Positions 7,106 to 30,040 of a stretch of DNA of 40,130 nucleotides are shown here, piece by piece (position 1 is the stretch's first letter; each line of letters opens with the position of its first letter). The stretch is taken from contig JANQDY010000206.1 in the NCBI GenBank assembly GCA_028278625.1, forward strand, positions 1 to 40,130. Direction: 5' to 3'. Under the pieces are notes generated by a model. The model searched no databases and was not told where the DNA came from. It worked only from the letters and a program-made list of their open reading frames with translations. The position numbers were made by a program, and so were the translations under genes. The stretch is from Thermodesulfobacteriota bacterium. GTDB lineage: Bacteria > Desulfobacterota > DSM-4660 > Desulfatiglandales > Desulfatiglandaceae.

Positions 7106-7178
7106 AAAAAAAGCCCTCTTTGCCGACTATTCGGGCAAAGAAGGCTTCATTACCTTCAAGAACGCTTCGTCACGTACT
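7106..7178 (-). promoter_or_regulatory. Element A: ANTAR-type dual-hairpin leader with terminator before moaD-aor
   Basis: On the minus strand, hairpin 1 (7159-7178) is AGTACG-TGACGAAG-CGTTCT with one T-T mismatch. Hairpin 2 (7140-7157) is GAAGG-TAATGAAG-CCTTC, one base further on. The 3' arm of hairpin 2 is also the 5' arm of a 12-bp terminator stem (7134-7145 with 7113-7124, one G-T pair) followed by seven T's (7106-7112). The two loops obey YRAYGRNG; inside the Y-G closing pair the hexaloops are GACGAA and AATGAA. Mutually exclusive antiterminator and terminator hairpins with G at loop position 4 are the hallmark of ANTAR targets. ANTAR binding is inferred. Confidence 0.8.
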
Positions 7179-7190
7179 GTTTTGTCTTTC

Positions 7191-7219
7191 TGTATAACCG
7201 GCTTGATTTTGCATGTCAA
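7191..7219 (-). promoter_or_regulatory. Sigma70-type promoter of the moaD-aor operon
   Basis: On the minus strand TTGACA (7214-7219) is followed after 17 bases by TATACA (7191-7196). The expected start near 7184 leaves a few bases before hairpin 1 of element A. The near-consensus boxes argue that initiation is strong and that control lies in the leader. Confidence 0.75.
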
Positions 7220-7231
7220 GCAAATTTTTCC

Positions 7232-7260
7232 TTGACATCCTTCATCACATTTCATACTTA
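7232..7260 (+). promoter_or_regulatory. Sigma70-type promoter of the small-protein/acyl-CoA dehydrogenase unit
   Basis: TTGACA (7232-7237), 17 bases, TACTTA (7255-7260). It is divergent from the moaD promoter; the two -35 boxes form the inverted repeat TGTCAAG/CTTGACA with 10 bases between the arms. Transcription should start about 15-20 bases before hairpin 1 of element B. Confidence 0.65.
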
Positions 7261-7284
7261 TATCAGTAATTACATATGCATATC

Positions 7285-7354
7285 GAGTCTAACGGTGGAC
7301 TCATGAGGTAATGAAGCCTCCACTTCCCGACAGAGGGAGTGGGGGCTTTTTTTT
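7285..7354 (+). promoter_or_regulatory. Element B: ANTAR-type dual-hairpin leader with terminator
   Basis: Hairpin 1 is GAGTC-TAACGGTG-GACTC (7285-7302), then two bases, then hairpin 2 GAGG-TAATGAAG-CCTC (7305-7320). The CCTC arm is reused in a terminator stem (about 7316-7328 with 7335-7346) followed by eight T's (7347-7354). Hexaloops are AACGGT and AATGAA, both with A at position 1 and G at position 4. It is the cleanest copy in the window and lies 42 bases before the ATG of the 103-aa protein. Confidence 0.85.
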
Positions 7355-7396
7355 CGATGTACATAAAGCCCAAGTGTTTTGGCGAAGGAGGAGAAA

Positions 7397-7708
7397 ATGG
7401 CCAAAGAGATTATCCTGTACAATCTTAAAGAGAGCGTCACCGATGAAGAATACAAGCAGTATTGTGAAGAGAAAAAGGGACCCTTCCTAAACGGGTTGCC
7501 GTCGTGCAAGAAATTCACCCTTGTGAAAATCACGGCTTCAAACAAGGGGGAAATTCCTTACAAGTACGTGGGGATCGTGGACACCACCAGTCAGGAAGAA
7601 TGGTTGAAAGACACCCAGTCGGAAGGATTTCAACAGTTCCTTCAGGAGTGGGTACCAAAGGTGGCCGATTTCCATATTCTCATGGGAGAGGAAGTTTTCG
7701 GCGGCTGA
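7397..7708 (+). CDS. Small dimeric alpha/beta-barrel-like protein (HapK/REDY-like), 103 aa
   Basis: The ATG at 7397 has the SD GGAGGAG just upstream; an earlier in-frame TTG at 7379 has none. The sequence alternates strands and helices in the ferredoxin-like pattern (KEIILYNLKESVTDEEYKQY, KFTLVKI, YKYVGIVDTTSQEEWLKD, FHILMGEEVF). It resembles the small HapK/REDY-like and EthD/Dabb-type proteins that often accompany catabolic enzymes. No catalytic residues can be assigned. It lies between two ANTAR-type elements, B upstream and C downstream, and is followed after 111 bases by the acyl-CoA dehydrogenase. Family assignment is from pattern memory and moderate only. Confidence 0.65.
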   Translation: MAKEIILYNLKESVTDEEYKQYCEEKKGPFLNGLPSCKKFTLVKITASNKGEIPYKYVGIVDTTSQEEWLKDTQSEGFQQFLQEWVPKVADFHILMGEEVFGG

Positions 7709-7733
7709 TCACGGGACTTGAGCAAGAATGAGC

Positions 7734-7801
7734 GTCCGATGAGGGACATATGAGGTAATGGGGCCTCTTTTCTTCTGTCTGAGAAAAGGGGCTTTTTTTT
7801 T
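7734..7801 (+). promoter_or_regulatory. Element C: internal ANTAR-type leader with terminator before the acyl-CoA dehydrogenase
   Basis: Hairpin 1 is GTCC-GATGAG-GGAC (7734-7747), four bases, hairpin 2 GAGG-TAATGGGG-CCTC (7752-7767). The CCTC arm is shared with a 10-bp terminator stem (7763-7772 with 7783-7792) and nine T's (7793-7801). No promoter is visible in the 25 bases before it, and the upstream gene ends at 7708, so it acts on read-through transcripts. It makes expression of the dehydrogenase depend on a second antitermination event. Confidence 0.8.
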
Positions 7802-7819
7802 AGATTTATGGAGGGGAAC

Positions 7820-9028
7820 ATGCTTCGAAAAGACGTATTTACGGAAGAGCAGAATGCCATTGGCGATATGGTAAATAAGTTCGTGGATAACGAAATCATG
7901 CCTGTTCGCCAGGAACTTGAAAGTGACCCGAAACTGGTGGAATCGATTCATCAGAAACTGGTGGATCTGGGCATCCAGAAGGCGGGGTACCCTCCTGAAT
8001 ACGGCGGAACCGGACCCGGCTCCCCCACCACCCTGGGAATCGTTTGCGAAGAACTGGCACGAGGAGATGCCGGCATCAGCCTCAGCTGCGGCATCAACGC
8101 CGGATTCGTGCTCCATGCGGCCATGGTGGCCGGCAACAAAGCCGTTTTGGATGAGTTCATCCCCCCTTTCTGCGGCGATAAGATCAATTCTGCCTGTCTC
8201 TCCATGACCGATGCCACCGGCGGTGCGGACACGGAAAATCCTTTGTTAAAGGGAAGAGGCATCAAAACAAGAGCGTTCCTGGATGGGGATGAGTGGGTGA
8301 TCAACGGGAGCAAATCCTGGCCGACGCATGCGGGCATCTCCAGCGTCTATCTCACCGTATGCAACACCGATTATGAGCAGGGTGAGGAGGGCATCGCCCT
8401 TATCTTTGTACCGGATGGCACGCCGGGCCTCAGTTTCGGACAGCCCGAAGCCAAAATGGGTTTTCAGACCTCCGTTAACGCCAGCGTTTTCTATGACAAC
8501 GTGCGCGTCCCCAAGGATTTTCGATTGGCGGGCCCGGGACCGGACGCCCAGTTCTATTATGCCACCATGGCCGGTACCCAGTGGCATTCATCGGTGATTG
8601 CTTTGGGCATCATGCGGGCGGTCTTTGAGATTATCCTGGATTATACCCAAGGGCGGGAGAGCGGCGGCAAACCGATCAGGGAATGGAGTCTTGTGGCCGG
8701 CATCCTGGCGGATATGGCTATCCGGTTGGAGATGACCCGTGGCGCCGTTTACAATTACGCTTATATGATGGAGCATCCGGAAATATACGGTCCTCCCTTT
8801 ACCAATGATATGGTGGCCAAGGCCAGCATCGTCCGATCTTATGCCTCCGACAGCGTTGTCTGGATCGCCAACAAAGCCATCGAACTCATGGGATCCAATG
8901 GTCTTTCTCCCGAGTATCATCTGGAGAAATATCTCAGGGACTCAAAAATAACCCAAATATGGCTCGGCGGCCAACAGGTCTCCAAGTATCGCATCGCCAG
9001 AGGTTATTACGACTATTCGGTCTACTGA
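7820..9028 (+). CDS. Acyl-CoA dehydrogenase family flavoprotein lacking the usual catalytic Glu
   Basis: 402 residues. The ATG at 7820 is preceded by GGAGGGG; the upstream ATG at 7808 lies before that SD. The three-domain ACAD pattern is clear: an N-terminal helical domain (FTEEQNAIGDMVNKFVDNEI), the FAD/substrate strand region (SACLSMTDATGGADTENP, INGSKSWPTHAG) and the C-terminal four-helix domain. The family oxidises acyl-CoA thioesters to enoyl-CoA and passes electrons to ETF. Oddly, the C-terminal Y-E-G-T site that supplies the base in medium- and short-chain enzymes reads W-L-G-G here (residues 381-384). The alternative isovaleryl/long-chain Glu position also aligns with a non-Glu residue. 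It may use another base or have a different reaction. It lies downstream of element C. Confidence 0.88.
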   Translation: MLRKDVFTEEQNAIGDMVNKFVDNEIMPVRQELESDPKLVESIHQKLVDLGIQKAGYPPEYGGTGPGSPTTLGIVCEELARGDAGISLSCGINAGFVLHAAMVAGNKAVLDEFIPPFCGDKINSACLSMTDATGGADTENPLLKGRGIKTRAFLDGDEWVINGSKSWPTHAGISSVYLTVCNTDYEQGEEGIALIFVPDGTPGLSFGQPEAKMGFQTSVNASVFYDNVRVPKDFRLAGPGPDAQFYYATMAGTQWHSSVIALGIMRAVFEIILDYTQGRESGGKPIREWSLVAGILADMAIRLEMTRGAVYNYAYMMEHPEIYGPPFTNDMVAKASIVRSYASDSVVWIANKAIELMGSNGLSPEYHLEKYLRDSKITQIWLGGQQVSKYRIARGYYDYSVY

Positions 9029-9073
9029 AAGACGGGGAACCAGGAATACCGCCCATGGCCGCTTATGATGATT

Positions 9074-9113: not shown

Positions 9114-9119
9114 TGGTTC

Positions 9120-9683
9120 TCATCCATACATCATAATCACCGCTTCGGCCACATCCTTGATGGGCTTGTTCTTCTTCATGCTGATTTCCTGCAGGCGGCG
9201 ATAGGCCTTGGGTTCGGTGAGGCCCTCATTTTCCATCATCAATCCTTTGGCCCGCTCCACCAGCTTCCGGGTTTCAAGCTGAGTCTTCAAAGCAACAACC
9301 CGTTCTTTGAGGGCGGATTTTTCCATGAATAGGCTCACCGCCAGCTCAACGGCGGAAGCGACATCTCCCACCCGGAACGGTTTGGTGATATAAGCCATGA
9401 CGCCTGCTTCTTTGGCCTTTTCAATCAAATGGCGCTCCGAAAAAGCCGTGAGGATGACCACAGGGTGCTGCCTGGATATCTTCCGGGCCACTTGAATACC
9501 GTCCATTTCGGGCATTTTGATGTCCAAAATCGCCACATCGGGGTTCTTTTGTTGAACCAACTTGAGAGCCTCCATGCCGTCCTTGGCTTCTCCCACGACC
9601 CGATATCCCAAATCCTCAAGCACTTCTCTCAGATCGCGCCGCAACAAGGGCTCATCATCGGCAATCAGAATGCGTAAGCTCAT
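9120..9683 (-). CDS. Response regulator with receiver and RNA-binding ANTAR domain (EutV-like)
   Basis: 187 residues. The N-terminal 120 residues are a CheY-like receiver: acidic pocket Asp9/Asp10, phospho-acceptor Asp54 in LDIKMPEMDG, a conserved Thr in ILTAF and Lys in ITKPF. A coiled-coil linker leads to a C-terminal ANTAR domain (about 130-187: LVERAKGLMMENEGLTEPKA, YRRLQEISMKKNKPIKDVAE). ANTAR domains bind paired RNA hairpins with six-base loops and prevent terminator formation, as in EutV, NasR and AmiR. The ATG overlaps the kinase stop (ATGA), with AAGGAG upstream, so the two are co-expressed. It is the obvious reader of the eight leader elements described in this window; direct binding is an inference. 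Confidence 0.93.
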   Translation of the reverse strand: MSLRILIADDEPLLRRDLREVLEDLGYRVVGEAKDGMEALKLVQQKNPDVAILDIKMPEMDGIQVARKISRQHPVVILTAFSERHLIEKAKEAGVMAYITKPFRVGDVASAVELAVSLFMEKSALKERVVALKTQLETRKLVERAKGLMMENEGLTEPKAYRRLQEISMKKNKPIKDVAEAVIMMYG

Positions 9684-12523
9684 TTATCGCTCCTTGCTTT
9701 TATGGAATAGTACCCCTGTGGCAGGGGAAAGGTCAACTCAGCGGTGGCACCGCCACCTGATCGAATCTTCAAGGCGCCTTTCAACTCCTCGCTGGCAAGC
9801 GTTTGGACGATGGTCAATCCAAGATTTCCGTCCTTCTCGGGATCGAAATCCATTGGGAACCCCGGGCCATCGTCTTTCACGGTGACCGTGACCACATTCT
9901 TCATCTGCCGTATCTTTACGGAAACCCGTCCGCCCTCTTCTTTTTTAACACCATGCTCCATTGCATTTTGAATGAGCTCATTGACCACCAGGGCCACGGA
10001 GGTCGCCTCCCGGGAAGGGATCATCACCGGGTGCTCAGACGCATCGAGGGTAATCCAGGGCCTGTTCGCCGGCCCTGAATCGGCCGCTTTGCCGATATTC
10101 CCCACCAAACGCCCCAGATCCACCATGCCGATCTGCCCCTCGGAAAGGGACTCGTGGACCATTGCAATGCTCATGATACGGGAAATGCTGTCGCTTAGGG
10201 CCTGCTCCGGTGACACGTGATCCAACCTGCGAAGCTGCATGCGAAGAAGAGCCGCGATATTTTGAAGATTGTTCTTAACCCGGTGATGGATCTCGCGATA
10301 AAAGGTCGAGTGTTTACTTAAAGACCGGTTTTCGATAAACATGGCCACCTGGGAAGAAATCCCCACCAGGAATTGAACACTTTCCGATATGTGGTCCGGA
10401 TAAAAAAGAAAAGCCTTGTCCGGTGTTGCGTAAAGATTCAAAACGGCCCGCAATTCATCTTTATAGATGACCGGGACCGTCGCAAAGCTGTAAGGGAAAG
10501 GGGCTTTCAAATAGATGGGAGAGGGATGCTCCGATTGCTCCGAAAAAAACAGGGGTTCGGAATGCTCGATCTGCCAGTTGGTGACTCTTTCGTCGTTCTC
10601 CACTTCAGTGTCGCTGATTTGAACTTCTCCTCCCCCATCCACCGCTTCTTTGATCCAAATGCGGTGGGTTCGGTCTACCAGCCAGAGGGTCGCAAAAGAA
10701 AGATCCAGAATTCGTCGAATATGCTTGACGATGTTCTGAGATTGAACCGCTGAACTGATCTGCCGGCTGAATTCATATCCCAGTTGATTGAGGATTTCCA
10801 ACTGGTTCATTTTCATGGCCAGGCTGCCGTCCAATTCAATCCTGTATAGACCGCTGGCGGTGAGATTGCCGATGATTTCCGCCAGCACCCGATCTTCCTC
10901 TTCCGGCGCCTGTCCATTCTTTTTTCCTTTGAAAGCAAGATTCCCGAAATGTTTCCCATGGCTGTCAAGACTCACGCAATGGTAGTCTTCCTCCATTTCT
11001 TTTTGTGTTACGCGCCTAGGGAATGAATTTGCATCCGAGGTACTTGCCAGTCGGTAGGCGTTCCCATCGTCCGTTATCAGGTAGAAAGCACCGTTGGCCC
11101 AGGGGAACAATGCTGAAAACTCCATTGTCAGCGCCTTCAACAGACCGCCTGCGTCGGTCCCATCCTGAATAATGCGGTTGACGCTTCTGATGGACCTGAT
11201 TTGTGAGACTTTTCGATCCAGTCTCGTCGAGAATTCCCGGTAAACCCGTTTGCTTTGATGCATCAGGGAAGCCACGGGATTCAGCTCGTCTGAAAACACC
11301 AGCGTTGACACGGACTGATTGTTATAGACCGGGAGGCCGTCATCAAAAATGCCCATTTCGCCATAGGTGTAGAAACCGCAAAGCGGCAGCTTTGCGTGGG
11401 TCAGCACGCGTGTAATTTCTTCCTGCTCAACCGCATCCGTTAGTCGTAAGGCACAGGAAAACATGAACCCGATTTCAGGTTTTCTGAGGCCGCCGTACCG
11501 CACGGCCTTTTCGTAGGCGGAAACGCCTGCTTTTGCAATTTCACCCCGATCCGCCTGCATGAGGGTCATCACCCGATCATTCCCAACAAGGTGAGAAAAC
11601 TGGATGGACCCGTCCGCCAAAATCTTCTCCGGCACCAGCAAAAGGGAATTGCCGTAAACATCCATGGAACCGAAAGGGTGTTCGTTCAAAGGAGAAGGGG
11701 GCGCCGGCAGATTGTCCCTGATTTGTGCCACGGGAATTTCCAGCATTTCCGCATAAACATCGGCCGCGGGGCGGTTGTCGAACTGCTGCACGATGTGGCT
11801 GGACGCCTTTGTCACCAATGTGCGCTTCGTGGTCGGAGAAAACCCGTGCGACATGCCCAGACCGAAAAGGATCTCCGTTTCCAAAAAAGCAAGTGCAACG
11901 GCATCGTTTGACACCCGGCTATTGATCATCTGATAGTTGGGGCCATAACGAAAATAATCTCCTGAGCTGCCGCCAAAAATGGGAATCCGATTGGCGGAGC
12001 TTTTGCGAAGAAACGTATGAATATCATGGGTAAGAGAGAAACCGCTCTTGGTGGCCCCCGGCGTGAAAATCATGAGCAGCACCGGCGACACTCCCAGCGT
12101 TCCCGAAGCCGACACATTGAGCATTTGGTGTTCCGGAAATCTCGCATCGAAATATTCAGAAATGTCAGCATCTTTGAGCGCCTCATTGACGGCTTTCTGA
12201 TGATCCGTCGAAACCCCTTCCCCCATACCCAGTTTCACATTGATATGGGGCGAACAAAGGAGGGTCACAACGACACTGTTCCTCAAAAACCCATCCGCAA
12301 TCTCTCCGGCGGCACTGGTGCCGATGAGCGGGCAGTCCTCAAGAACATCCACCATCCCCCGATTGACCTCAAGAACATCCAGCTCGGGAGAAACAAACGC
12401 AACGGCGAGACTCGGCTGGAATTTCTCCCGGCGTGAAAGTGCCTGGGAGGCCGCCTCCCGCCCCATCTCCACGGGGTTTTCGGCAATGCTTTTCCCTATG
12501 TGTGCTTCAAAGTAGATCGGCAA
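9680..12523 (-). CDS. FIST-domain sensor histidine kinase (HisKA_2 type), partner of the ANTAR regulator
   Basis: 947 residues, no clear membrane segment, so a cytosolic sensor is likely. Residues about 1-400 match FIST_N and FIST_C (LAVAFVSPELDVLEVNRGM, LIGTSAAGEIADGF, FMFSCALRLTD, LPLCGFYTYGEMG); FIST domains are proposed to bind small ligands. Two GAF-like regions follow (about 430-570 and 580-735). The transmitter begins at 741 with YREIHHRVKNNLQNIAALLR, the HisKA_2 H-box (His746/747), then an HATPase_c domain with VNELIQNAMEHG (N box), DDGPGF and a glycine-rich NLGLTIVQ. HisKA_2 kinases are the usual partners of ANTAR regulators (EutW). The gene overlaps the regulator gene at 9680-9683. 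A ligand entering the cell, perhaps a product of the cluster's transporters, is the likely signal. Confidence 0.92.
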   Translation of the reverse strand: MPIYFEAHIGKSIAENPVEMGREAASQALSRREKFQPSLAVAFVSPELDVLEVNRGMVDVLEDCPLIGTSAAGEIADGFLRNSVVVTLLCSPHINVKLGMGEGVSTDHQKAVNEALKDADISEYFDARFPEHQMLNVSASGTLGVSPVLLMIFTPGATKSGFSLTHDIHTFLRKSSANRIPIFGGSSGDYFRYGPNYQMINSRVSNDAVALAFLETEILFGLGMSHGFSPTTKRTLVTKASSHIVQQFDNRPAADVYAEMLEIPVAQIRDNLPAPPSPLNEHPFGSMDVYGNSLLLVPEKILADGSIQFSHLVGNDRVMTLMQADRGEIAKAGVSAYEKAVRYGGLRKPEIGFMFSCALRLTDAVEQEEITRVLTHAKLPLCGFYTYGEMGIFDDGLPVYNNQSVSTLVFSDELNPVASLMHQSKRVYREFSTRLDRKVSQIRSIRSVNRIIQDGTDAGGLLKALTMEFSALFPWANGAFYLITDDGNAYRLASTSDANSFPRRVTQKEMEEDYHCVSLDSHGKHFGNLAFKGKKNGQAPEEEDRVLAEIIGNLTASGLYRIELDGSLAMKMNQLEILNQLGYEFSRQISSAVQSQNIVKHIRRILDLSFATLWLVDRTHRIWIKEAVDGGGEVQISDTEVENDERVTNWQIEHSEPLFFSEQSEHPSPIYLKAPFPYSFATVPVIYKDELRAVLNLYATPDKAFLFYPDHISESVQFLVGISSQVAMFIENRSLSKHSTFYREIHHRVKNNLQNIAALLRMQLRRLDHVSPEQALSDSISRIMSIAMVHESLSEGQIGMVDLGRLVGNIGKAADSGPANRPWITLDASEHPVMIPSREATSVALVVNELIQNAMEHGVKKEEGGRVSVKIRQMKNVVTVTVKDDGPGFPMDFDPEKDGNLGLTIVQTLASEELKGALKIRSGGGATAELTFPLPQGYYSIKARSDK

Positions 12524-17117: not shown

Positions 17118-17134
17118 GATTAAAGGAGAAAGAA

Positions 17135-17587: not shown

Positions 17588-17596
17588 TCCTTTAAT

Positions 17597-18889: not shown

Positions 18890-18916
18890 GCCACATCTCC
18901 TTTCTCTCTTAGAAGT

Positions 18917-20781: not shown

Positions 20782-20786
20782 GCGGA

Positions 20787-22212: not shown

Positions 22213-22268
22213 GCCGGGATTTCCAGATTTATCCGTCAAGACTCGCAAACCGTTTCACACGCACCGCT

Positions 22269-23057
22269 CTAGACGTGCCCGTGGATATTGCACAAAACAT
22301 GTTGATTCATGCCGCCGTCACATGGAATGTTGGCCCCTCTGATCCATCCGCTCTCCTCGCTTAAAAGAAAGGCGATGACCGGTGCGATATCAGGAGGCCG
22401 CCCCGGACGGTCCATGACCTTCATGTCCTCTTCGGCGCGGGCCCCCAAGGTCTCAAGAAAATCGGGAAGGATGGGCGTTTCAACAGGACCCGGGCTCACG
22501 GCATTGATCCGAATCCCTCGATCGCGCCATGTCCAGCGATTCATCATGGTCCAGACGATCAGGGTTTCCTTGGAAAAGAAATAGGACCTTCCGCCTTCCT
22601 GGGCCACGTCTGTTTCTTCGCAGAGGGCCTCTACGCCATCGAAATCCCGTAGCGCCAGCATTGCCTTGATCTGATCACCCGCTTCCGGCCAACCGATGCC
22701 GGCAAGGGAGGCCACGTTGACAATGGAGGCATTGTCATTGAGCTTGTTGATCATCAGTTCGGTAAAATGTCTGAGCCCCAGGAAATTCACCTTCAGCACC
22801 AGGGCCCGATCCTTTGTTGGCGGCAGGCCCGCAATATTGCAGAGCCCGTCAATCCCTTTGGGAATCGCATCAACCGCCGTCTCAATGGACCCAGAATCTG
22901 AGAGATCAGCCTGAATGTATCGATCCACATCGGCGATCGGTTCGTTTAAATCAACACCAATGACCGTTGCACTCTTTTCTTTCAGCACTTTAGCGGTCTC
23001 GGCACCGATGCCCGAGGCCGCACCTGTCACCACGATCTTTCTATTCTCCAAAGACAT
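22269..23057 (-). CDS. Short-chain dehydrogenase/reductase, 3-alpha-hydroxysteroid dehydrogenase-like branch
   Basis: 262 residues from the ATG at 23057, preceded by AGGAGGAAAC. The Rossmann motif TGAASGIG is at 11-18, then the acidic residue after strand 2 (VDLNEP, favouring NAD), NIAGLP in the NAG position, the catalytic Ser in NVASLAG and the Tyr/Lys pair in SYFFSKE. A long insert between the Ser and Tyr (about 30 residues) and the ending DGGMN resemble the 3-alpha-HSD/carbonyl reductase and cinnamyl-type alcohol dehydrogenase group. It should interconvert an alcohol and a ketone or aldehyde. It heads the ABC operon directly behind elements E and D, which suggests that it acts on the imported compound or its product. 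Confidence 0.87.
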   Translation of the reverse strand: MSLENRKIVVTGAASGIGAETAKVLKEKSATVIGVDLNEPIADVDRYIQADLSDSGSIETAVDAIPKGIDGLCNIAGLPPTKDRALVLKVNFLGLRHFTELMINKLNDNASIVNVASLAGIGWPEAGDQIKAMLALRDFDGVEALCEETDVAQEGGRSYFFSKETLIVWTMMNRWTWRDRGIRINAVSPGPVETPILPDFLETLGARAEEDMKVMDRPGRPPDIAPVIAFLLSEESGWIRGANIPCDGGMNQHVLCNIHGHV

Positions 23058-23079
23058 TGCGTTTCCTCCTTCCAACAAC

Positions 23080-23154
23080 AAAAAAGCCCCCTTTGCCCTT
23101 CCGCAGGCAAAGGAGGCGCCATTACCTCCTGAATGCGTCAACGCTTCAGCATTC
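23080..23154 (-). promoter_or_regulatory. Element D: second of two tandem ANTAR-type leaders before the SDR-ABC operon
   Basis: On the minus strand hairpin 2 is AGGAGG-TAATGGCG-CCTCCT (23111-23130); its 3' arm joins a 12-bp terminator stem (23106-23117 with 23086-23097) and six T's (23080-23085). Upstream is a GAATGC/GCATTC stem (23149-23154 with 23131-23136), but its loop is 12 bases rather than the six-base type, so hairpin 1 is atypical. It starts directly after the T-tract of element E and lies 23 bases before the SDR start. Confidence 0.78.
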
Positions 23155-23155
23155 C

Positions 23156-23226
23156 AAAAAAAAAGCCTCTTCACCGGCAACAGGTGAAAAGGCGTCATTA
23201 CCTCTAAAAATGCGTCATTACATTTT
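23156..23226 (-). promoter_or_regulatory. Element E: first of two tandem ANTAR-type leaders before the SDR-ABC operon
   Basis: On the minus strand hairpin 1 is AAAATG-TAATGACG-CATTTT (23207-23226) and hairpin 2 is AGAGG-TAATGACG-CCTTT (23188-23205), both with the identical hexaloop AATGAC. The 3' arm of hairpin 2 continues into an 11-bp terminator stem (23183-23193 with 23165-23175) followed by nine T's (23156-23164). Confidence 0.84.
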
Positions 23227-23245
23227 CAAATCGCTATTAAATTCC

Positions 23246-23274
23246 AGGATAGCTTTCGATCTTGTCGGTGTCAA
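23246..23274 (-). promoter_or_regulatory. Promoter of the SDR-ABC operon
   Basis: On the minus strand TTGACA (23269-23274), 17 bases, TATCCT (23246-23251). The start should fall just before hairpin 1 of element E. Confidence 0.72.
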
Positions 23275-23590: not shown

Positions 23591-23619
23591 TTGACATCAT
23601 CAAAAAAATAATATTAGCT
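23591..23619 (+). promoter_or_regulatory. Promoter of the second ABC operon
   Basis: TTGACA (23591-23596) with TTAGCT after 17 bases (23614-23619), or TATTAG after 15. It is preceded and followed by A-rich sequence. Transcription would begin about 20-25 bases before the antiterminator hairpin of element F. Confidence 0.6.
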
Positions 23620-23624
23620 GCCTT

Positions 23625-23719
23625 TCGATTAAAGGATCTGTTAAGAGGTAACGGCGCCTCTTTTGCGTGATGTTGCGCATCTTTTGCTGCGCAGTATTGT
23701 GTAAAAGGGGTTTTTTTTT
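23625..23719 (+). promoter_or_regulatory. Element F: ANTAR-type leader with terminator before the second ABC operon
   Basis: Hairpin 2 is AGAGG-TAACGGCG-CCTCT (23644-23661), hexaloop AACGGC. The CCTCTTTTGC arm pairs with GTAAAAGGGG to form a long terminator stem containing an inner TGCGCA/TGCGCA hairpin, then nine T's (23711-23719). Upstream, CCTTT-CGATT-AAAGG forms a stem, but its loop does not follow the hexaloop rule. An alternative CTGTTA/TAACGG pairing could sequester the loop of hairpin 2. The SBP gene starts 135 bases downstream. Confidence 0.72.
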
Positions 23720-23854: not shown

Positions 23855-25057
23855 ATGTTAAAGCGTTATTTCAAAAAGGTTCTGGCTTTTTTGGTTGTCA
23901 TGGTCTCTCTTTCACTGGCAGGCTCGGCCCTGGCCACAGATACCATCAAAATCGGCGCATCAGCGGCGAAGACAGGTCCCTTGGCCGGTGGTACCGCTGT
24001 TACCCATTGGCCCAATATCAAGCTTTGGGTACATGAGGTAAACGCCAGAGGGGGCCTTCAGCTAAAAGACGGTAAGGCAAAAATCGAATTGGTGGAATAT
24101 GATGACCGCACTTCTCCCGGGGAAGCCATCAAAAACATCCAACGGATGGCGACCCAGGACAAGGTGGAATTCATCATCGCACCCTACGGGACCGGCTTGA
24201 ATCTGGCCACGGCCCCAATATTTGCAAAACACGGTTATCCGCAACTCGCCACAACCGCCATTACCGATAAGATTCCTGAGTTGACAAAACGGTATTCCAA
24301 TATCTTCTTTTTATTGGGAGATACCAGCTCCCTTGCCAAGGATGTGGTCAAAATACTTACAAAGATGAAAAACGACGGACTCATCGGCAACCGCGTGGCC
24401 ATGGTCAACGTGGCGGATGCTTTTGGCATCGAACTGGCGAACGCCGCCCGACCCCTCTTTAAAGAGGCTGGTTTTGAGATCGTCTATGACAAATCCTATC
24501 CCCTTGGCTCCCAGGACCTGTCACCCGTGATCCGGGGTGCGAAGGCGTCTAATCCTGACGCTTTCGTTGCATGGTCCTACCCCGGAGATACTTTCGGACT
24601 CACGGAACAAGCAAAGATCGAAGGGCTGGACGTAAAGGCCCACTATTCGGCCGTGGCCACCGCCTTTCCCGCCTTTGGTAAAAAATTCGGAAAAAATGCG
24701 GAAGGTATTTTGGGTGCGGGCGGTATCAACCCGGACACGCCTGAAATGCAGGCCTACATCAAAGCCCACAAAGCGGTGACCGGAAAGGAACCGGATTACT
24801 GGGCCAGCCCGGTAACCTATGCCGCATTGGAGATTCTGGAAAAGGCCATTGAAAGCGTGGGTTCAACAGACAGGAAGGCGGTTACGGAATATATCAAGAC
24901 CCATACCTTTGATACGGTCATCGGCCCGGTTAAATTCGTTCGGCAGAACAATGAAGAATTCTGGACCGTCGGTCAATGGCAGAACGGCAAGTTCTACGGT
25001 GTCAGCTCCACGGGCAGACCGGGTGCCAAGCCTGTCAAAGCCAAGCCCGCTTGGTAA
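23855..25057 (+). CDS. ABC transporter substrate-binding protein, HAAT class (second system)
   Basis: 400 residues with a signal peptide (MLKRYFKKVLAFLVVMVSLS, cleavage near GSALA-TD), then TIKIGASAAKTGPLAGGTAV as in the LivK-like type I fold and a proline/lysine-rich tail. AAAGGAG lies upstream of the ATG. It is clearly not a copy of the first system's binding protein, so the two importers probably have different ligands. It opens a five-gene operon (SBP, LivH, LivM, LivG, LivF) led by element F. Confidence 0.9.
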   Translation: MLKRYFKKVLAFLVVMVSLSLAGSALATDTIKIGASAAKTGPLAGGTAVTHWPNIKLWVHEVNARGGLQLKDGKAKIELVEYDDRTSPGEAIKNIQRMATQDKVEFIIAPYGTGLNLATAPIFAKHGYPQLATTAITDKIPELTKRYSNIFFLLGDTSSLAKDVVKILTKMKNDGLIGNRVAMVNVADAFGIELANAARPLFKEAGFEIVYDKSYPLGSQDLSPVIRGAKASNPDAFVAWSYPGDTFGLTEQAKIEGLDVKAHYSAVATAFPAFGKKFGKNAEGILGAGGINPDTPEMQAYIKAHKAVTGKEPDYWASPVTYAALEILEKAIESVGSTDRKAVTEYIKTHTFDTVIGPVKFVRQNNEEFWTVGQWQNGKFYGVSSTGRPGAKPVKAKPAW

Positions 25058-25120
25058 TCGTTATTGATAGGGGTTCAGGGCTATTTTTGCACCGGCAACG
25101 TTCATTTCAGGTAATCTCAA

Positions 25121-25990
25121 ATGCTTGAAGTTTTTATTATCGGTATCCTGCTTGGCGGAACCTATGCCTTAATCGCAATGGGGCTGCAGCTCCAATACGG
25201 CGTGGCCAGGATCATGAATCTTGCCAACGGTGAGTTGCTGGTAGCGGGCGCCTTTGGTGCCTTCTGGCTCTATACGGGCGCTCAATTAAGCCCCGTCCTA
25301 TCCGTAATGCTTGTCATGCCCCTATCCTTTGTTCTGAACTGGCTCATCTACCGGTGGCTGCTTCAACCGCTCGTCCGCCGTGCCAAGACACATGGTCAAT
25401 TGGAAGTGGACAGCATCCTTGCCACCTTCGGTATCACATTCGTCATGGTGGGAATCATGCTGGCCATCTTCGGCGGGGAATACTTCAGCTATTCCTATCT
25501 GGCCGAACCGCTCAATATTTTAGGCCATCCCTATGCCTTAAACCGGGTCATGGCATTCCTCATGTCTTTGGCCCTGGGATCGGTATTAATCTTCTGGACC
25601 TACAGAACCCGGACGGGCATGACTTTTAGGGCCGTTGCCATCAGTTCCGAGGCATCGGGGCTTGTGGGCATCAATGTCCCAAGGATTCTGGCAATGGCCT
25701 TCTCCCTGGGAGGGGCGGTTACGGCGGCGGGTGGCTGTATGCTCAGCATGTTTTTGATATTTGATGCCTCAATCGGTGTCGTATTTACCATGAAAGCGCT
25801 CATTATCGTGATATTGGGCGGTGTGGGAGACCTGCGGGGTGTTATTCTCGCGGCATTTATGCTGGGGCTGGCTGAGACCGCGGTGGCCAGCTGGGTTGAT
25901 CCGGGATTGACCCTTGCTGCCGCTTATCTGCTCTTTATCCTCATCCTGCTGTTCAGGCCCCAGGGGCTTTTGGGGAGGCGGCCCTCTTGA
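25121..25990 (+). CDS. livH: ABC permease, LivH type (second system)
   Basis: 289 residues with the family start FIIGILLGGTYALIAMGLQL and QYGVARIMNLANGELLVAGA, about eight membrane segments, and the coupling segment AISSEASGLVGINVPRILAM. It lies 63 bases after the SBP gene and overlaps the LivM start. Confidence 0.9.
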   Translation: MLEVFIIGILLGGTYALIAMGLQLQYGVARIMNLANGELLVAGAFGAFWLYTGAQLSPVLSVMLVMPLSFVLNWLIYRWLLQPLVRRAKTHGQLEVDSILATFGITFVMVGIMLAIFGGEYFSYSYLAEPLNILGHPYALNRVMAFLMSLALGSVLIFWTYRTRTGMTFRAVAISSEASGLVGINVPRILAMAFSLGGAVTAAGGCMLSMFLIFDASIGVVFTMKALIIVILGGVGDLRGVILAAFMLGLAETAVASWVDPGLTLAAAYLLFILILLFRPQGLLGRRPS

Positions 25991-26913
25991 CCTTTAAGGA
26001 AAAACGAAATCTCGCTTTGATCTGCCCCCTTTTTGGACTGGCGGCCCTGCTCCCGTTGACGGACGCAGGATATTGGATCTCCATGGGCGTGACCATTGTG
26101 ATGTATACGGTGTTGGCCACCTCCTGGGCCCTCTTCTCCGGCCCCACCCACTATATTTCTCTTGCCAGCGCCGCCTTTTTCGGGCTCGGCATGTATGTGG
26201 TTGCCGGATTTATCGAGGTCGTTCCCTATCCGCTGCTGGTGTGTGCGGCGGCGCTGGTGGGAGCGGTTCTTGCCGCCATCGTGGGCCTGGCCACATTGCG
26301 TATATCGGGCGTCTATTTCGTTATTTTCACGCTGGGTCTTTCTGAACTCATCCGGCAGGTCATGACCTGGATACAGACCACCATGGGGACCAGCAGCGGT
26401 CTCTACGTCCTCACCAACATCACTGAAACTGTCATCTATTGGGAGTTATTATGTCTTGCCGCGCTGGTCTTCTTGGTGGGATGGTGGATCGGACGATCCC
26501 GGTTGGGTTTTGCCCTTCGGATTATCGGAAATGATGAAACCGTGGCGGTGCATTGCGGCATCAACACCGCATATAGCAAGGTGGCTTTGTTTATGGCATC
26601 GGGCACCTTTGCCGCCATCACAGGGGCCGTTCTGGCGCCCCGGTGGACCTATGTGGAACCGACCATCGCCTTTAGCCCCATCATCTCCTTTCAGGTGGTT
26701 ATCATGGCGCTTCTGGGCGGAATGCACCGGCTATGGGGTCCCATTCTGGGCGTTATACCCTTTACGCTTTTGTGGGATTTTATTTCGGCCAATTTCCCCA
26801 ATCAGACAACTCTGCTTTTGGGAGTGGCCTTTTTGTTGATCGTCTATCTCATTCCAAAGGGTGTGGCCGGATTGTTTGAAAGCCTGATCTCCCGCGGAAA
26901 CGGGCCTGATTGA
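25987..26913 (+). CDS. livM: ABC permease, LivM type (second system)
   Basis: 308 residues from a TTG at 25987 that overlaps the LivH stop (TTGA). Hydrophobic segments and the motif SGPTHYISLASAAFFGLGMY fit LivM; the coupling segment is RIIGNDETVAVHCGINTAYS. A TTG start in a 4-base overlap suggests translation by reinitiation after LivH. Confidence 0.88.
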   Translation: MTFKEKRNLALICPLFGLAALLPLTDAGYWISMGVTIVMYTVLATSWALFSGPTHYISLASAAFFGLGMYVVAGFIEVVPYPLLVCAAALVGAVLAAIVGLATLRISGVYFVIFTLGLSELIRQVMTWIQTTMGTSSGLYVLTNITETVIYWELLCLAALVFLVGWWIGRSRLGFALRIIGNDETVAVHCGINTAYSKVALFMASGTFAAITGAVLAPRWTYVEPTIAFSPIISFQVVIMALLGGMHRLWGPILGVIPFTLLWDFISANFPNQTTLLLGVAFLLIVYLIPKGVAGLFESLISRGNGPD

Positions 26914-26920
26914 TGTTGCC

Positions 26921-27655
26921 ATGATGCAAAACGCCGCACTAAAAATCGAAAACATCACCAAAAGCTTCGGTGGCATTGTCGCCGTTTCAAACATGTATTT
27001 CCGGTTGGAGGAACAAGAAGTATTGGGATTGATCGGACCCAACGGTTCAGGCAAGACCACCATGATGAATCTGATCTCAGGCAACCTCAGACCCACATCC
27101 GGAAGCATATTCCTCTACGGTGAGGAGATCTCAGGCGCCCCACCCAACCGGATATCCCGGATGGGAATCGCCCGTACTTTTCAACTGGTCCGTATCCTCC
27201 CTTCGCTGACGGTCCTTGAGAATGTGGCCGCAGGCGGCGTTTTCGGCCATCGCCGGCAATGGGGTCAATCGCTGGCGGAGAACGCCCGCCGTCTTCTGGA
27301 TCGTTTGGGAATCGGTCACGCGGAAAAAGCACCCGTATCAGCGTTGAACTACATCGACCAGAAGCGAGTTGAACTGGCAAGGGCCCTGGCCGGTGATCCC
27401 AAACTCCTTCTCCTGGATGAGTGGCTCGCGGGCCTGAACCCCACGGAATTGAAGACGGGCATTTCGTTGATCAAGGAACTCCGCCGCGAGGGTAGAACCA
27501 TCATCATTGTAGAACATGTAATGGATGCCATCCGCAGCCTCTGTGACCGCTGCGTTGTCATGAATAGCGGCGTTAAAATCGCGGAAGGATCTCCCGAAGA
27601 GGTATTGAGCGATCCGAAGGTCATTCAGGCTTACCTGGGAGAATCCGATGCTTGA
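26921..27655 (+). CDS. livG: ABC transporter ATPase, LivG type, divergent signature (second system)
   Basis: 244 residues. Walker A is GPNGSGKTT, Walker B LLLLDEWLAGLNPTE, with the LivG insert FQLVRILPSLTVLENV. As in the first system, the signature loop is unusual: LNYIDQKRVELARALA, without the Gly-Gln of LSGGQ/LSYGQ. It overlaps the LivF start by 8 bases. Confidence 0.88.
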   Translation: MMQNAALKIENITKSFGGIVAVSNMYFRLEEQEVLGLIGPNGSGKTTMMNLISGNLRPTSGSIFLYGEEISGAPPNRISRMGIARTFQLVRILPSLTVLENVAAGGVFGHRRQWGQSLAENARRLLDRLGIGHAEKAPVSALNYIDQKRVELARALAGDPKLLLLDEWLAGLNPTELKTGISLIKELRREGRTIIIVEHVMDAIRSLCDRCVVMNSGVKIAEGSPEEVLSDPKVIQAYLGESDA

Positions 27656-28358
27656 AACAAGGGATATTACCGTTTATTACGGTCAGCACCGGGCTCTGGA
27701 GGAGGTATCTTTGACGGTTCCAACCGGTGACATTGTCGTGATGCTGGGGGCAAACGGGGCCGGCAAGAGCACGCTTCTTCGTTCGATCTCCGGACTCATC
27801 CCCAAAAAGAAAGGAAGCGCCGTTTTTTTAAACGGCCAGGAGATCACCGGATTAAAATCCCATGAGATAGTTGAAGCAGGCATCAGCCTCGTACCGGAGG
27901 GAAGGGGCATCTTCGGTGATCTGAAGGTGCAGGAGAATCTGGCACTGGGCGCCCATCCAGGCAGGGCCAGGGAGAGAGAAGCGGAAAACATGGCACGGGT
28001 TCTTGACCTTTTTCCCGTGCTGGGGGCCCGCAGAAAACAGATCGTCCGAACCATGAGCGGTGGAGAGCAACAAATGGTGGCCATCGGGCGGGCCCTCATG
28101 TCCCACCCCTCCATCTTGATGCTGGATGAACCTTCCCTGGGACTGGCACCGGTTCTCTGCAAGGAACTCTTTCGCACGCTGGCCCGTATCCGTGAGAAGG
28201 GTGTCGGCGTGTTTCTTGTGGAGCAGAACGCAAAACAGAGCCTCGCCATTGCGGATCGCGGGTATCTTCTTGAAAACGGACAGGTGACCGGATCGGATAT
28301 GGCAGGGGCACTGCTCAAAGATGAGCAGGTCCAAAAGGCCTATCTGGGGGGTGTCTGA
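27648..28358 (+). CDS. livF: ABC transporter ATPase, LivF type (second system)
   Basis: 236 residues starting MLETRDITVYYGQHRALEEV. Walker A GANGAGKST, signature MSGGEQQM and Walker B LMLDEPSLGLAP are all canonical. It is the last gene of the second importer operon; a hairpin terminator follows at 28470-28491. Confidence 0.9.
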   Translation: MLETRDITVYYGQHRALEEVSLTVPTGDIVVMLGANGAGKSTLLRSISGLIPKKKGSAVFLNGQEITGLKSHEIVEAGISLVPEGRGIFGDLKVQENLALGAHPGRAREREAENMARVLDLFPVLGARRKQIVRTMSGGEQQMVAIGRALMSHPSILMLDEPSLGLAPVLCKELFRTLARIREKGVGVFLVEQNAKQSLAIADRGYLLENGQVTGSDMAGALLKDEQVQKAYLGGV

Positions 28359-28452
28359 GCTCCGAGGGGATCATTGCCAATGCGCCCGTCGGTTCCAGGA
28401 CCTCGAACCGACTTGTCACCCGGTATCAACGTTCCTCCTTTTCCTCATCAAC

Positions 28453-29919
28453 CTAGAACCTTGTAAAGGCGGCCCATTGGGGGGCCGTTTTCGGTCTCGG
28501 CTTTCGGCCGTAGAAGATGTCGTCCAATATGGAGAAAGCTCGACGCGAGATCCGGTTCCGGCTGATCAACCAGACGATCAACCGATGGGGGAAGGTTCGC
28601 GCGTGGCTAAAGGGGCAGACCTTCATGCACACATTGCAGTCGGTCCCCACCTTGCCCCAATAGTTGAAACAGCTTTCATCATCCAGTTTCCATTTCAGGC
28701 ATCCGTTATGCAAAACGGGATCCTCTTCCAGAGGAATGGATTTTGACGGACAGCAGACCCCGCATTTCTTGCAGATTTTACAGAAATCCTGAACACCGAT
28801 GTCCACCGGCTTATCACAAAGAAGCGGCATGTCGGTGGTCACCGCACTCAGCCGGATACGCGGCCCGAATTCCCGGGTCAAAAGGTATCCCAGCCGTCCG
28901 ATCTCACCCAGGCCCGCATCCACGGCCAGGGGCGGCAGAATCACCTCATAATGGCGCAAATGGTTGGCCGTGGCCGAATAGCCCAGGTTTGAAATAAAGG
29001 CCGCCAACTGGGTGCTCACATAGGCCCCCTTGGCGTAATTGTTCATGCTTTCAACGAGGGTCGGGGTGTGGGGCGCAGGGCCGATCAAATCGAGGGACAT
29101 CTCCTCGGCAAAGACGATGGCGTACCCATGGGTCAACTCAATCTCCTTGCCCCAGTCGGACCAGTTCTCCCGGAATATCTCACCCCTGTGTGAATAGACC
29201 CAGAGGGGGTTTATTTCGGTGATTCCCACCAGATCCGCCCCCAGATTCCTCACATACCCTTTGACCCGGATGGAAGCCTCTTGGGGGGAAAGGTGAACGG
29301 GGTTTTCGCTTCTTTTTGGGGGGATGAGCGGATGCGGTTTCGGTTTTACGATGTCCGGTGCCGACAGGTGGTGCGGCATGGCCAGGGACCCCATGAGCAT
29401 GGCCACATCCGCATCCGCATAAGGCCTGTCAATGGTACCCGGAATGCCGATGGGACCACCCTTGGCACGACGATCAGCATCGACTGCCTCCTTTTCAGGA
29501 TGATCCCCGTAATAGGCCCGGTACTCCCTTGAACCGGTCCTCAGACCTCGGTTACGGGCAAACACCTGATCCCGCTCGTCAAACCTCCTGACATCACCGG
29601 TCACATACCCCATGGCCCCCTTTAGGGCCCGCTGATTGACCGCGGTCCTTCGCGCGGCAACAGCGACCGCGGTGATACCCATTAGACAGCCCAGCACCAG
29701 AATGACCGCACCAAAACCGCTGTTGAAAAGACCGGAAAGGCCCAGCAACAAAAAGACCACGAAAAGCCCCAGCATTCCCAGGAACTGCAAAAACCCCCAA
29801 AAAGTCGCCCGGGGCTCCTTTTCATAGATGGAAGAGATAAAAAAGCCCAAGCCCACAAAGGCCTGAACCGCCAGGGCGATACCCGCCGCCCACATTAAGA
29901 TGCTGAGAAAGATCCCCAT
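28453..29919 (-). CDS. Reductive-dehalogenase-like protein fused to an N-terminal three-helix membrane anchor
   Basis: 488 residues. Residues about 5-30, 38-63 and 68-89 are three hydrophobic helices, like the separate anchor RdhB. No Tat signal is present. The rest resembles RdhA: HYEVILPPLAVDAGLGEIGR, EFGPRIRLSAVTTDMPL, then FCKICKKC with Cys380, 383, 386 and 390 (C-x2-C-x2-C-x3-C-P) and a second set Cys417, 428, 431, 435. RdhA enzymes carry a corrinoid and two [4Fe-4S] clusters and cleave carbon-halogen bonds; QueG uses the same fold for epoxyqueuosine, but lacks the membrane anchor. Without a Tat signal the catalytic part probably faces the cytoplasm. AAGGAGG precedes the ATG. It sits behind element G, so it belongs to the antitermination regulon. 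Dehalogenation is not proven. Confidence 0.82.
   Translation of the reverse strand: MGIFLSILMWAAGIALAVQAFVGLGFFISSIYEKEPRATFWGFLQFLGMLGLFVVFLLLGLSGLFNSGFGAVILVLGCLMGITAVAVAARRTAVNQRALKGAMGYVTGDVRRFDERDQVFARNRGLRTGSREYRAYYGDHPEKEAVDADRRAKGGPIGIPGTIDRPYADADVAMLMGSLAMPHHLSAPDIVKPKPHPLIPPKRSENPVHLSPQEASIRVKGYVRNLGADLVGITEINPLWVYSHRGEIFRENWSDWGKEIELTHGYAIVFAEEMSLDLIGPAPHTPTLVESMNNYAKGAYVSTQLAAFISNLGYSATANHLRHYEVILPPLAVDAGLGEIGRLGYLLTREFGPRIRLSAVTTDMPLLCDKPVDIGVQDFCKICKKCGVCCPSKSIPLEEDPVLHNGCLKWKLDDESCFNYWGKVGTDCNVCMKVCPFSHARTFPHRLIVWLISRNRISRRAFSILDDIFYGRKPRPKTAPQWAAFTRF
28470..28491 (+). terminator. Intrinsic terminator of the second ABC operon
   Basis: CGGCCC-attggg-GGGCCG followed by TTTT, 112 bases past the LivF stop. 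It overlaps the 3' end of the convergent reductive-dehalogenase-like gene, which ends at 28453. Confidence 0.7.
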
Positions 29920-29967
29920 AATTCTCTGCGCCTCCTTGATTGAAAGGTCCCATGCCGATCCCCGAGC

Positions 29968-30040
29968 AAAAAAAACCTCTTCCGCACGAGATGATACAAA
30001 ACCTGCCCACCGTCACGCAGAAGAGGCGCCGTTACCTCTT
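29968..30040 (-). promoter_or_regulatory. Element G: ANTAR-type leader with terminator before the reductive-dehalogenase-like gene
   Basis: On the minus strand hairpin AAGAGG-TAACGGCG-CCTCTT (30021-30040), hexaloop AACGGC as in element F. Its 3' arm CCTCTTCTGC pairs with GCGGAAGAGG in the terminator, around a long insert of about 30 bases, then eight T's (29968-29975). No second hexaloop hairpin is visible in the short AT-rich stretch up to the promoter. The gene starts 48 bases after the T-tract. Confidence 0.72.

What the first reader, a model, noticed from the sequence alone, without database searches (positions are those of the whole stretch)
7106..30040. A local ANTAR antitermination regulon: eight copies of one hexaloop-hairpin/terminator element around an ANTAR two-component system
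Elements A-H (7106-7178 minus, 7285-7354 plus, 7734-7801 plus, 23080-23154 minus, 23156-23226 minus, 23625-23719 plus, 29968-30040 minus, 17597-17646 minus) share one design. A short stem closes the loop YRAYGRNG, and its CCTC-type 3' arm is reused as the 5' arm of an intrinsic terminator with 5-9 T's. The stems change sequence while keeping pairing (GAGG/CCTC, GAAGG/CCTTC, AAGAGG/CCTCTT), so the copies covary. The hexaloops (AATGAA, AACGGT, AATGGC, AACGGC, AATGAC, AATGGG, GACGAA, GATGAG) all keep G at position 4, mostly with A at position 1, which is the known ANTAR loop rule. Seven of the eight sit directly upstream of genes, where plain terminators make no sense, and an ANTAR response regulator lies at 9120-9683. 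I am not aware of a described regulon of this kind for these genes.
Basis: partly seen in the sequence, partly recalled or inferred. Interest (0 to 1): 0.93.

Follow-up and report, generated by a model that had tools for sequence, protein, structure and literature searches.

The report
Loop-gated RNA switches for catabolic genes
In seven places ahead of genes this bacterial DNA encodes a six-base-loop RNA hairpin that overlaps a predicted transcription stop signal, and one neighbouring sensor-regulator pair likely opens all seven together, which would switch on uptake and breakdown genes including an unusual predicted dehalogenase.

Summary
A-G are attenuators with ANTAR-type hexaloops, just upstream of genes; H is an ordinary 3' terminator.

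A, B, C and E are canonical (upstream hairpin, then a hairpin overlapping the terminator). D, F and G invert the order: the hairpin that competes with the terminator comes first and the second hexaloop lies inside the terminator; in D it is the apex.

Elements recur beside the same FIST-kinase/ANTAR-regulator pair in all seven related genomes found with it. Among 395 Desulfobacterota genomes the strongest hits are in the four kinase carriers (three at E below 1e-11, one at 2.5e-6); seven others reach only 4e-4 to 9e-4. ANTAR domains occur in 164.

Targets recur: EthD-like protein plus acyl-CoA dehydrogenase, aldehyde oxidation (three unrelated enzyme families), SDR plus ABC importers, a membrane-hybrid reductive dehalogenase.

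ANTAR antitermination and ANTAR regulons were known, mostly for nitrogen genes. New here: FIST input, carbon and organohalide targets, inverted architecture. Binding, signal and direction of control are inferred.

The parts
9120..9683 (-). ANTAR response regulator (receiver + ANTAR)
   Evidence: Pfam Response_reg 107.5 bits, ANTAR 77.3 bits; aligned to EutV 6wsh, E 5e-36, and Rv1626 1s8n, E 5.4e-54
9680..12523 (-). Sensor histidine kinase FIST N - FIST C - GAF - HisKA_2 - HATPase, overlapping the regulator gene
   Evidence: Pfam; relatives
7106..7219 (-). Element A, canonical: promoter-like TTGACA 7214-7219 and TATACA 7191-7196; upstream hairpin 7162-7175, loop GACGAA; core hairpin 7140-7157, loop AATGAA; terminator 7113-7145, T-run 7106-7112
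4807..7100 (-). Genes behind A: ThiS/MoaD-like 6801-7100, aldehyde:ferredoxin oxidoreductase 4807-6678; a Fe-S protein follows at 3859-4539
   Evidence: Pfam
7232..7354 (+). Element B, canonical: TTGACA 7232-7237; upstream hairpin 7285-7302, loop AACGGT; core hairpin 7305-7320, loop AATGAA; terminator 7316-7346, T-run 7347-7354
   Evidence: (promoter no better than shuffles)
7379..7708 (+). Gene behind B: EthD/HapK-like small protein
   Evidence: Pfam HapK below cut-off; NCBIfam EthD family 24.4 bits, cut-off 30.5
7734..7801 (+). Element C, canonical, inside the operon: upstream hairpin 7734-7747, loop GATGAG; core hairpin 7752-7767, loop AATGGG; terminator 7763-7792, T-run 7793-7801
   Evidence: no promoter site better than shuffles
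7808..9028 (+). Gene behind C: acyl-CoA dehydrogenase
   Evidence: Pfam
23156..23274 (-). Element E, canonical, first of a tandem: TTGACA 23269-23274 and TATCCT 23246-23251; upstream hairpin around loop AATGAC 23214-23219; core hairpin 23188-23205, loop AATGAC; terminator 23165-23193, T-run 23156-23164
23080..23149 (-). Element D, inverted, second of the tandem: core hairpin 23111-23130, loop AATGGC; terminator 23086-23117 whose apex 23099-23104 is hexaloop GCGGAA; T-run 23080-23085; a bulged upstream hairpin with loop GTTGAC is also possible
17669..23198 (-). Genes behind E and D: SDR (translation searched from 23072; coniferyl-alcohol dehydrogenase subfamily) and branched-chain-amino-acid-type ABC importer 1
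   Evidence: Pfam; NCBIfam 310.4 bits, cut-off 242
23591..23719 (+). Element F, inverted: TTGACA 23591-23596; core hairpin 23643-23662, loop AACGGC; second hairpin 23664-23679, loop GATGTT, in the 5' arm of the long terminator 23656-23710; T-run 23711-23719
   Evidence: (promoter no better than shuffles)
23855..28358 (+). Genes behind F: ABC importer 2 (binding protein, two permeases, two ATPases)
   Evidence: Pfam
29968..30091 (-). Element G, inverted: TTGACA 30086-30091; core hairpin 30021-30040, loop AACGGC; second hexaloop GACGGT 30009-30014 with one stem mismatch; long terminator 29976-30027; T-run 29968-29975
28453..29919 (-). Gene behind G: predicted reductive dehalogenase with about three N-terminal TM-like segments and an E-K-E between the first two
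   Evidence: TIGR02486 168.7 bits, cut-off 160.35; 4ras E 2e-41, 4uqu E 1.3e-38, QueG 6.7e-6 at best; hydropathy; no dehalogenase Pfam match
17597..17646 (-). H: ordinary 3' terminator of the ABC importer 1 operon, not an element

Best explanation
A FIST-domain histidine kinase and its ANTAR response regulator likely switch on seven nearby leader RNAs together by antitermination. Each leader, except C and D, probably starts at its own sigma70-type promoter, and RNA polymerase is predicted to stop at an intrinsic terminator by default. When the kinase senses its ligand (unknown) it would phosphorylate the regulator; the active regulator would bind the hexaloop hairpin whose 3' arm is also the 5' arm of the terminator, hold it folded, and so let polymerase run on. 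In A, B, C and E the second hexaloop lies upstream, as in known ANTAR targets. In D, F and G it lies downstream, inside the terminator: holding the first hairpin would peel the base of the terminator stem away from the U-tract, while in D the upper stem with its hexaloop can stay folded and bound. Opening all gates would give uptake (two ABC importers), alcohol and aldehyde oxidation, acyl-CoA dehydrogenation and reductive dehalogenation for one class of organic compound, probably aromatic. Shown: sequences, pairing alternatives, gene order, recurrence in genomes. Inferred: binding, phosphorylation, ligand, substrate, direction of control.
For: Strict dual-loop scan 6 in 40 kb against 3 in 1.33 Mb. 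Covariation of the upstream helix. Terminator in the minimum-energy fold and more stable than the two-hairpin fold in 7 of 7. Regulator keeps R142, K143, Y164 and M172 of EutV, with K147 replaced by R. Elements near the pair in 7 of 7 genomes found with the kinase. Model R1 in 395 genomes: kinase carriers G103, G230, G330 at E 5.9e-12 or better and G355 at 1.6e-4; model R2: only G355, 2.5e-6; 164 of 395 have ANTAR. Out-of-sample genome G490: 5 hits, E 4.8e-11 to 1.9e-5, with orthologous targets. Family of G450: R2 strong in G450 alone of 46, though 30 have an ANTAR protein.
Against: No experiment. Seven genomes without the kinase have marginal R1 hits, E 3.6e-4 to 9.1e-4, not looked at by eye; one of the seven, G204, has an ANTAR domain. 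Five of 24 elements lack a second hexaloop by rule (G, G450c, G450e, G230c, G355b); G450c has A at position 4 of its upstream loop and G450e has no second stem. Neither model finds the G458 element. Inverted elements show no covariation beyond shuffles. Promoter-like sites of B and F are no better than shuffles. The window's own whole genome was not available.
Confidence: 0.82

Rival explanations
1. Single-loop version: D, F and G are ANTAR attenuators that use only the core hexaloop; the hexaloop inside the terminator is incidental. (A sub-question of the main reading, so its odds do not compete with it.)
For: Isolated single hexaloops bind EutV (Discussion of PMC8934654). The downstream stem is needed by the terminator anyway. 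G450e keeps the loop letters but not the stem.
Against: The terminator apex is an R1/G4 hexaloop in 8 of 9 non-redundant short-terminator contexts without an upstream partner and in 0 of 9 with one (Fisher p 4e-4 on a hand-entered table). Spacing is the same 13 nt.
Confidence: 0.35
2. In inverted elements the regulator stabilises the terminator through its apex hexaloop and so represses.
For: The second hexaloop is part of the terminator in D and its relatives.
Against: The core hairpin with the invariant loop excludes the full terminator stem, and canonical and inverted elements stand in tandem before one operon (E and D), where opposite effects would cancel.
Confidence: 0.07
3. Another ANTAR protein of the cell, not the FIST-linked one, works these leaders.
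For: G450, G103, G230, G330 and G355 each have two ANTAR matches.
Against: 29 other genomes of the family of G450 have an ANTAR protein, no kinase at E 1e-100 and no R2 hit below E 0.0147. Elements cluster at the FIST-linked pair.
Confidence: 0.05
4. Plain terminators or a repeat family without regulation.
For: Each element does contain a strong T-tailed hairpin.
Against: They stand ahead of genes, mostly behind promoter-like sites; loops are fixed at A1/G4 while upstream stems covary; they track the kinase/regulator pair.
Confidence: 0.04

Closest known systems
EutV/EutW and the eut leaders of Enterococcus faecalis (PMC3369931, section 10 and passages seen; PMC8934654, abstract and Discussion seen)
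   Same: Receiver-ANTAR regulator with its kinase; dual A1/G4 hexaloops; core hairpin shares its 3' arm with a terminator; several leaders under one pair
   Different: FIST-GAF kinase; carbon and organohalide genes; D, F and G have the terminator-overlapping hairpin first and the second hexaloop inside the terminator
NasR/nasF, AmiR/amiE and NasT leaders
   Same: ANTAR antitermination; Ramesh reports the same dual hairpin in nasF and amiE
   Different: Single loci for NasR and AmiR as described there; other sensors; nitrogen genes
Predicted ANTAR-RNA regulons of Desulfotomaculum acetoxidans and Pelobacter carbinolicus (Ramesh 2012)
   Same: Many elements in one genome over several operons
   Different: Nitrogen metabolism and nitrogenase rather than this gene set
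Hybrid transmembrane reductive dehalogenases (Atashgahi 2019, PMC6797604; passages and section 5 seen)
   Same: About three N-terminal TM-like segments, E-x-E between the first two, reductive dehalogenase match
   Different: No regulation is described in the passages seen; here the gene sits behind an ANTAR-type leader in three genomes
CprK and two-component control of reductive dehalogenase genes (search listing only)
   Same: Inducible dehalogenase genes
   Different: CprK is listed as a CRP-FNR type transcriptional regulator; here control would act on leader RNA

Membership tests
ANTAR target RNA (antitermination class) | Hexaloops with A at position 1 and G at position 4 | tested here: met
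   Core loops: A1 in 26 of 27, G4 in 27 of 27. Partner loops often have G1 instead of A1, and G450c has A4
ANTAR target RNA (antitermination class) | Two hexaloop hairpins with a short linker | tested here: met
   19 of 24 elements by rule, spacing 12-15, mostly 13; 5 of 24 fail the rule
ANTAR target RNA (antitermination class) | Second hairpin (P2) overlaps an intrinsic terminator | tested here: inconclusive
   Met in A, B, C, E; in D, F, G the first hairpin overlaps it and the second lies inside it
ANTAR target RNA (antitermination class) | Bound by an ANTAR protein, with regulator-dependent read-through | not testable with these tools
   Needs purified protein and transcription assays
ANTAR response regulator | Receiver plus ANTAR domain with the RNA-contact residues of EutV | tested here: met
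   Pfam; R142, K143, Y164, M172 kept, K147 is R (positions counted by me)
Hybrid transmembrane reductive dehalogenase | Reductive dehalogenase domain with N-terminal TM helices and E-x-E | tested here: met
   TIGR02486 over cut-off, 4ras and 4uqu, three TM-like segments by hydropathy, E-K-E by eye; no dehalogenase Pfam match
Hybrid transmembrane reductive dehalogenase | Dehalogenating activity | not testable with these tools
   Function of the group is reported as unknown in PMC6797604

The most novel reading that the evidence does not exclude
An inverted ANTAR switch: the antiterminator hairpin is transcribed first and the terminator's own apex is the second regulator-binding hexaloop, so the stop signal carries half of the binding site that disarms it. 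One FIST kinase drives such switches, beside canonical ones, to induce a whole carbon and organohalide catabolic programme.
Probability: 0.5. Interest if true: 0.82.

Novelty: new variant of a known kind. Interest (0 to 1): 0.7.

Why it matters
It would extend ANTAR antitermination from mostly nitrogen genes to carbon and organohalide catabolism, with a signal input (FIST) that no paper in the held library names together with ANTAR (0 papers). The inverted elements are a natural test of an open question: the successive-binding model of Walshe 2022 puts the recruiting hairpin before the antiterminator hairpin, and in D and its relatives that order is reversed. The regulon also gives the hybrid reductive dehalogenases, whose function is reported as unknown, a testable metabolic setting. 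The aldehyde-oxidising step behind these switches is filled by three unrelated enzymes in different genomes, so the switch seems to mark the step rather than the enzyme.

Tried and rejected
Of L001-L020, 19 match over the ANTAR domain as well, and none of the 20 shows two A1/G4 hexaloops with a terminator in 319,491 bases (2 hits in 1,012,695 bases of the other 60). The kinase was not found in six genomes reached through those loci. Element H was rejected. MAFFT aligned the first hairpin of F and G with the second of A-E, so two models were built. G458a was dropped from the canonical alignment because it was shifted; D was left out of it because it fits the inverted layout better; G355b was in neither alignment. 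For the Fisher table I dropped the G230 copies as near-duplicates of G103, F, G and G450e because their terminators have long arms, and G450c, which has neither partner by rule; G330a was counted as a hexaloop although RNAfold closes its apex to four bases. Covariation of the second hairpin in inverted elements would not discriminate, because the terminator needs those pairs anyway. The seven marginal R1 hits in genomes without the kinase were not inspected. Structure prediction and fold search were not used. The odds of the novel case were lowered from 0.55 to 0.5 because on recheck G450e has no second stem and G has a mismatch, which leaves the long-terminator elements weaker.
Full report
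WHAT IS THERE. Elements A-G are real and at the stated places. Each has a core hairpin, mostly xAGGU[AAYGRN]GCCUx, whose 3' arm GCCU... opens a T-tailed intrinsic terminator. In A, B, C and E the partner is upstream (GACGAA, AACGGT, GATGAG, AATGAC). In D, F and G it is downstream, inside the terminator (GCGGAA, GATGTT, GACGGT; G with one stem mismatch). D can also form a bulged upstream hairpin with loop GTTGAC (read by eye; coordinates). H has a U-C closing mismatch, lies 3' of the ABC operon and scores near background.

CHANCE. A strict rule (R1/G4 in both loops, spacing 13-14, both stems at least 4 bp, terminator of at least 6 bp and T5) gives 6 hits in the window (A-F), 3 hits in 1,332,186 bases of the 80 loci L001-L080 and 0 in 20 Markov windows. 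On the canonical alignment (9 sequences, 2 helices) 98.8% of cells pair, against 38-64% for slid partners, and 3 of 4 pairs of the upstream helix and 2 of 5 of the core helix have changes on both sides. On the inverted alignment (11 rows, 10 distinct) 93% of cells pair, but covariation does not exceed shuffles (161 of 500 as high), because the sequence hardly varies.

THE PROTEINS. 9120-9683 is a receiver-ANTAR regulator; 9680-12523 is a FIST, GAF, HisKA_2 kinase. The regulator aligns to EutV (6wsh) and Rv1626 (1s8n); R142, K143, Y164 and M172 of EutV are kept and K147 is R (I counted positions from the alignment with an offset of two; roles of the residues from the Discussion of PMC8934654). 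About 100 relatives of the kinase with the same domain order are among the 120 listed of 125 scored matches; those that carry an organism name are mostly deltaproteobacterial. Several regulator relatives come from contigs of the same length as kinase relatives. That FIST domains sense small ligands is recalled, not taken from a call.

RECURRENCE. Kinase matches at E 1e-60 were found in 6 of 395 genomes drawn from the phylum of G001: full-length in G103, G230, G330 and G355, and 32% over the FIST part only in G220 and G242. The class of G355 has 3 of 85 at E 1e-100 (G355, G450 with 81% identity, and G458 cut by its contig end). The class of G330 has 4 of 46 at E 1e-150 (G330, G230, G103 and G490). 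All seven genomes have elements near the pair. Of 24 elements taken from the window and these seven genomes, 9 have an upstream partner only, 10 a downstream partner only, 0 both and 5 neither by rule (G, G450c, G450e, G230c, G355b). Three more in G490 look inverted; one passes the strict scan and two were judged by eye. Core loops over these 27: A1 in 26, A2 in 27, G4 in 27 (list typed by hand).

SPECIFICITY. The inverted model R1 over 395 genomes has matches at E 0.001 or better in 11: G103, G230 and G330 (best E 2.7e-13, 1.7e-12, 5.9e-12), G355 (1.6e-4) and seven others at 3.6e-4 to 9.1e-4, of which only G204 is in the list of genomes with an ANTAR domain. So R1 alone separates G355 from these seven only narrowly. 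The canonical model R2 matches 1 of 395, G355 at 2.5e-6. Only 16 candidates per genome were scored in these wide searches. ANTAR domains occur in 164 of 395. In the 46 genomes of the family of G450, R2 finds 4 strong places in G450 (E 2.1e-9 to 2.6e-6), all within 6 kb of the kinase gene; six other genomes have hits of 0.0147 to 0.0651, although 30 of 46 have an ANTAR protein. In G450, G103, G230, G330 and G355 all hits with E below 0.01 lie on the contig of the kinase. The models contain elements from those genomes, so these scores are not independent; the lack of hits elsewhere is. G490 was not in the models: R1 finds 5 places, E 4.8e-11 to 1.9e-5, three beside the pair and two on other short contigs. 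Neither model finds the G458 element.

TARGETS. Window: A, ThiS and aldehyde:ferredoxin oxidoreductase; B and C, EthD/HapK-like protein and acyl-CoA dehydrogenase; E and D, an SDR over the cut-off of the coniferyl-alcohol dehydrogenase subfamily (310.4 against 242) with ABC importer 1; F, ABC importer 2; G, reductive dehalogenase. Relatives: EthD-like protein plus acyl-CoA dehydrogenase in G450, in G355 (followed on the same strand by the oxidoreductase) and in G490 (78% and 70% identical); NAD-type aldehyde dehydrogenase in G450, G103, G230 and G330; a molybdenum aldehyde/xanthine-type oxidoreductase in G490; an SDR, of another subfamily than the window's, followed by ABC importer 1 relatives in G103, G230 and G490; ABC importer 2 in G490; reductive dehalogenase in G450 (82%) and a more distant one in G458 (39% over about half); a URO-D-family methyltransferase followed by a phenylacetate-CoA-ligase-like gene in G450. 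Two elements in tandem stand before one operon in the window, G355, G103 and G230. An aromatic substrate is my inference from this set.

HOW IT WOULD WORK. In 7 of 7 window elements the minimum-energy fold contains the terminator and is more stable than the two-hairpin fold; the terminator alone is also lower in energy. Stop is thus the predicted default. TTGACA promoter-like sites end 30-48 nt before the core loop of A, B, E, F and G; the fraction of shuffles as good is 0.05, 0.28, 0.02, 0.99 and 0.02, so B and F are not supported statistically. C is inside an operon and D follows E. The terminator apex is an R1/G4 hexaloop in 8 of 9 non-redundant short-terminator contexts without an upstream partner and in 0 of 9 with one (Fisher p 4e-4; table entered by hand; dropped rows are listed under Tried and rejected). 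This replacement is the main evidence that the apex loop is used. Its stem proves nothing, since the terminator needs it anyway. For the long-terminator elements (F, G, G450e) the second hairpin is good in F, mismatched in G and absent in G450e.

WHAT IS KNOWN. Ramesh 2012 (PMC3369931; section 10 read in full, other passages) defined the dual hexaloop, its overlap with the terminator through P2, linker limits, and regulons, mostly of nitrogen genes, including one of nitrogenase operons in Pelobacter carbinolicus. Walshe 2022 (PMC8934654; abstract and Discussion read) found one hexaloop contacted at a time and proposed successive binding, recruiting hairpin first. Mehta 2021 (PMC8164766; passages) covers actinobacteria. 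Searches of the held library found no paper with ANTAR and reductive dehalogenase, with FIST domain and ANTAR, or with ANTAR, sulfate-reducing and antitermination; of three papers with reductive dehalogenase and antitermination one was seen in passages and describes another motif upstream of such genes in Dehalococcoides without naming ANTAR. Most subscription papers are not held. Transmembrane hybrid reductive dehalogenases are described, with unknown function, in PMC6797604 (passages and section 5).

VERDICT. An ANTAR regulon, well supported by comparison; a new variant in its inverted elements, its FIST input and its targets; function untested.

Noticed in passing
window 28453-29919 (-): Predicted reductive dehalogenase with about three N-terminal TM-like segments and an E-K-E motif, like the hybrid enzymes of PMC6797604; orthologs behind elements in G450 (82%) and, more distantly, G458 (39%).
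   Followed up: partly
window 13026-17587 (+): AMP-binding ligase, molybdopterin oxidoreductase, Lcl_C-domain and Fe-S genes divergent from the kinase, with no element ahead of them by the scans.
   Followed up: no
window 30873-36509 (-): Sulfotransferase, sodium/sulfate-type symporter, phenylacetate-CoA-ligase-like and TctA genes without an element by the scans; in G450 the ligase ortholog (90% over 285 residues) follows a URO-D-family methyltransferase gene that is behind an element.
   Followed up: no
L177 3144-3183 and L178 3532-3571 (genome G490): Elements on other contigs: ahead of a molybdenum aldehyde/xanthine-type oxidoreductase, and ahead of the EthD-like plus acyl-CoA dehydrogenase pair.
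   Followed up: partly
L090 17951-17990 (genome G450): The counterpart of element C has A instead of G at position 4 of its upstream loop (AATAAT), a break of the loop rule.
   Followed up: no
protein collection, P0036, P0038, P0043: Relatives of the FIST kinase of about 1140 residues carry an extra receiver domain; no ANTAR domain is listed for them.
   Followed up: no
family of G450, 29 genomes besides G450: A second kind of ANTAR protein, usually in a frame of about 240-270 residues, is common and has no such elements by model R2; its targets are unknown here.
   Followed up: no
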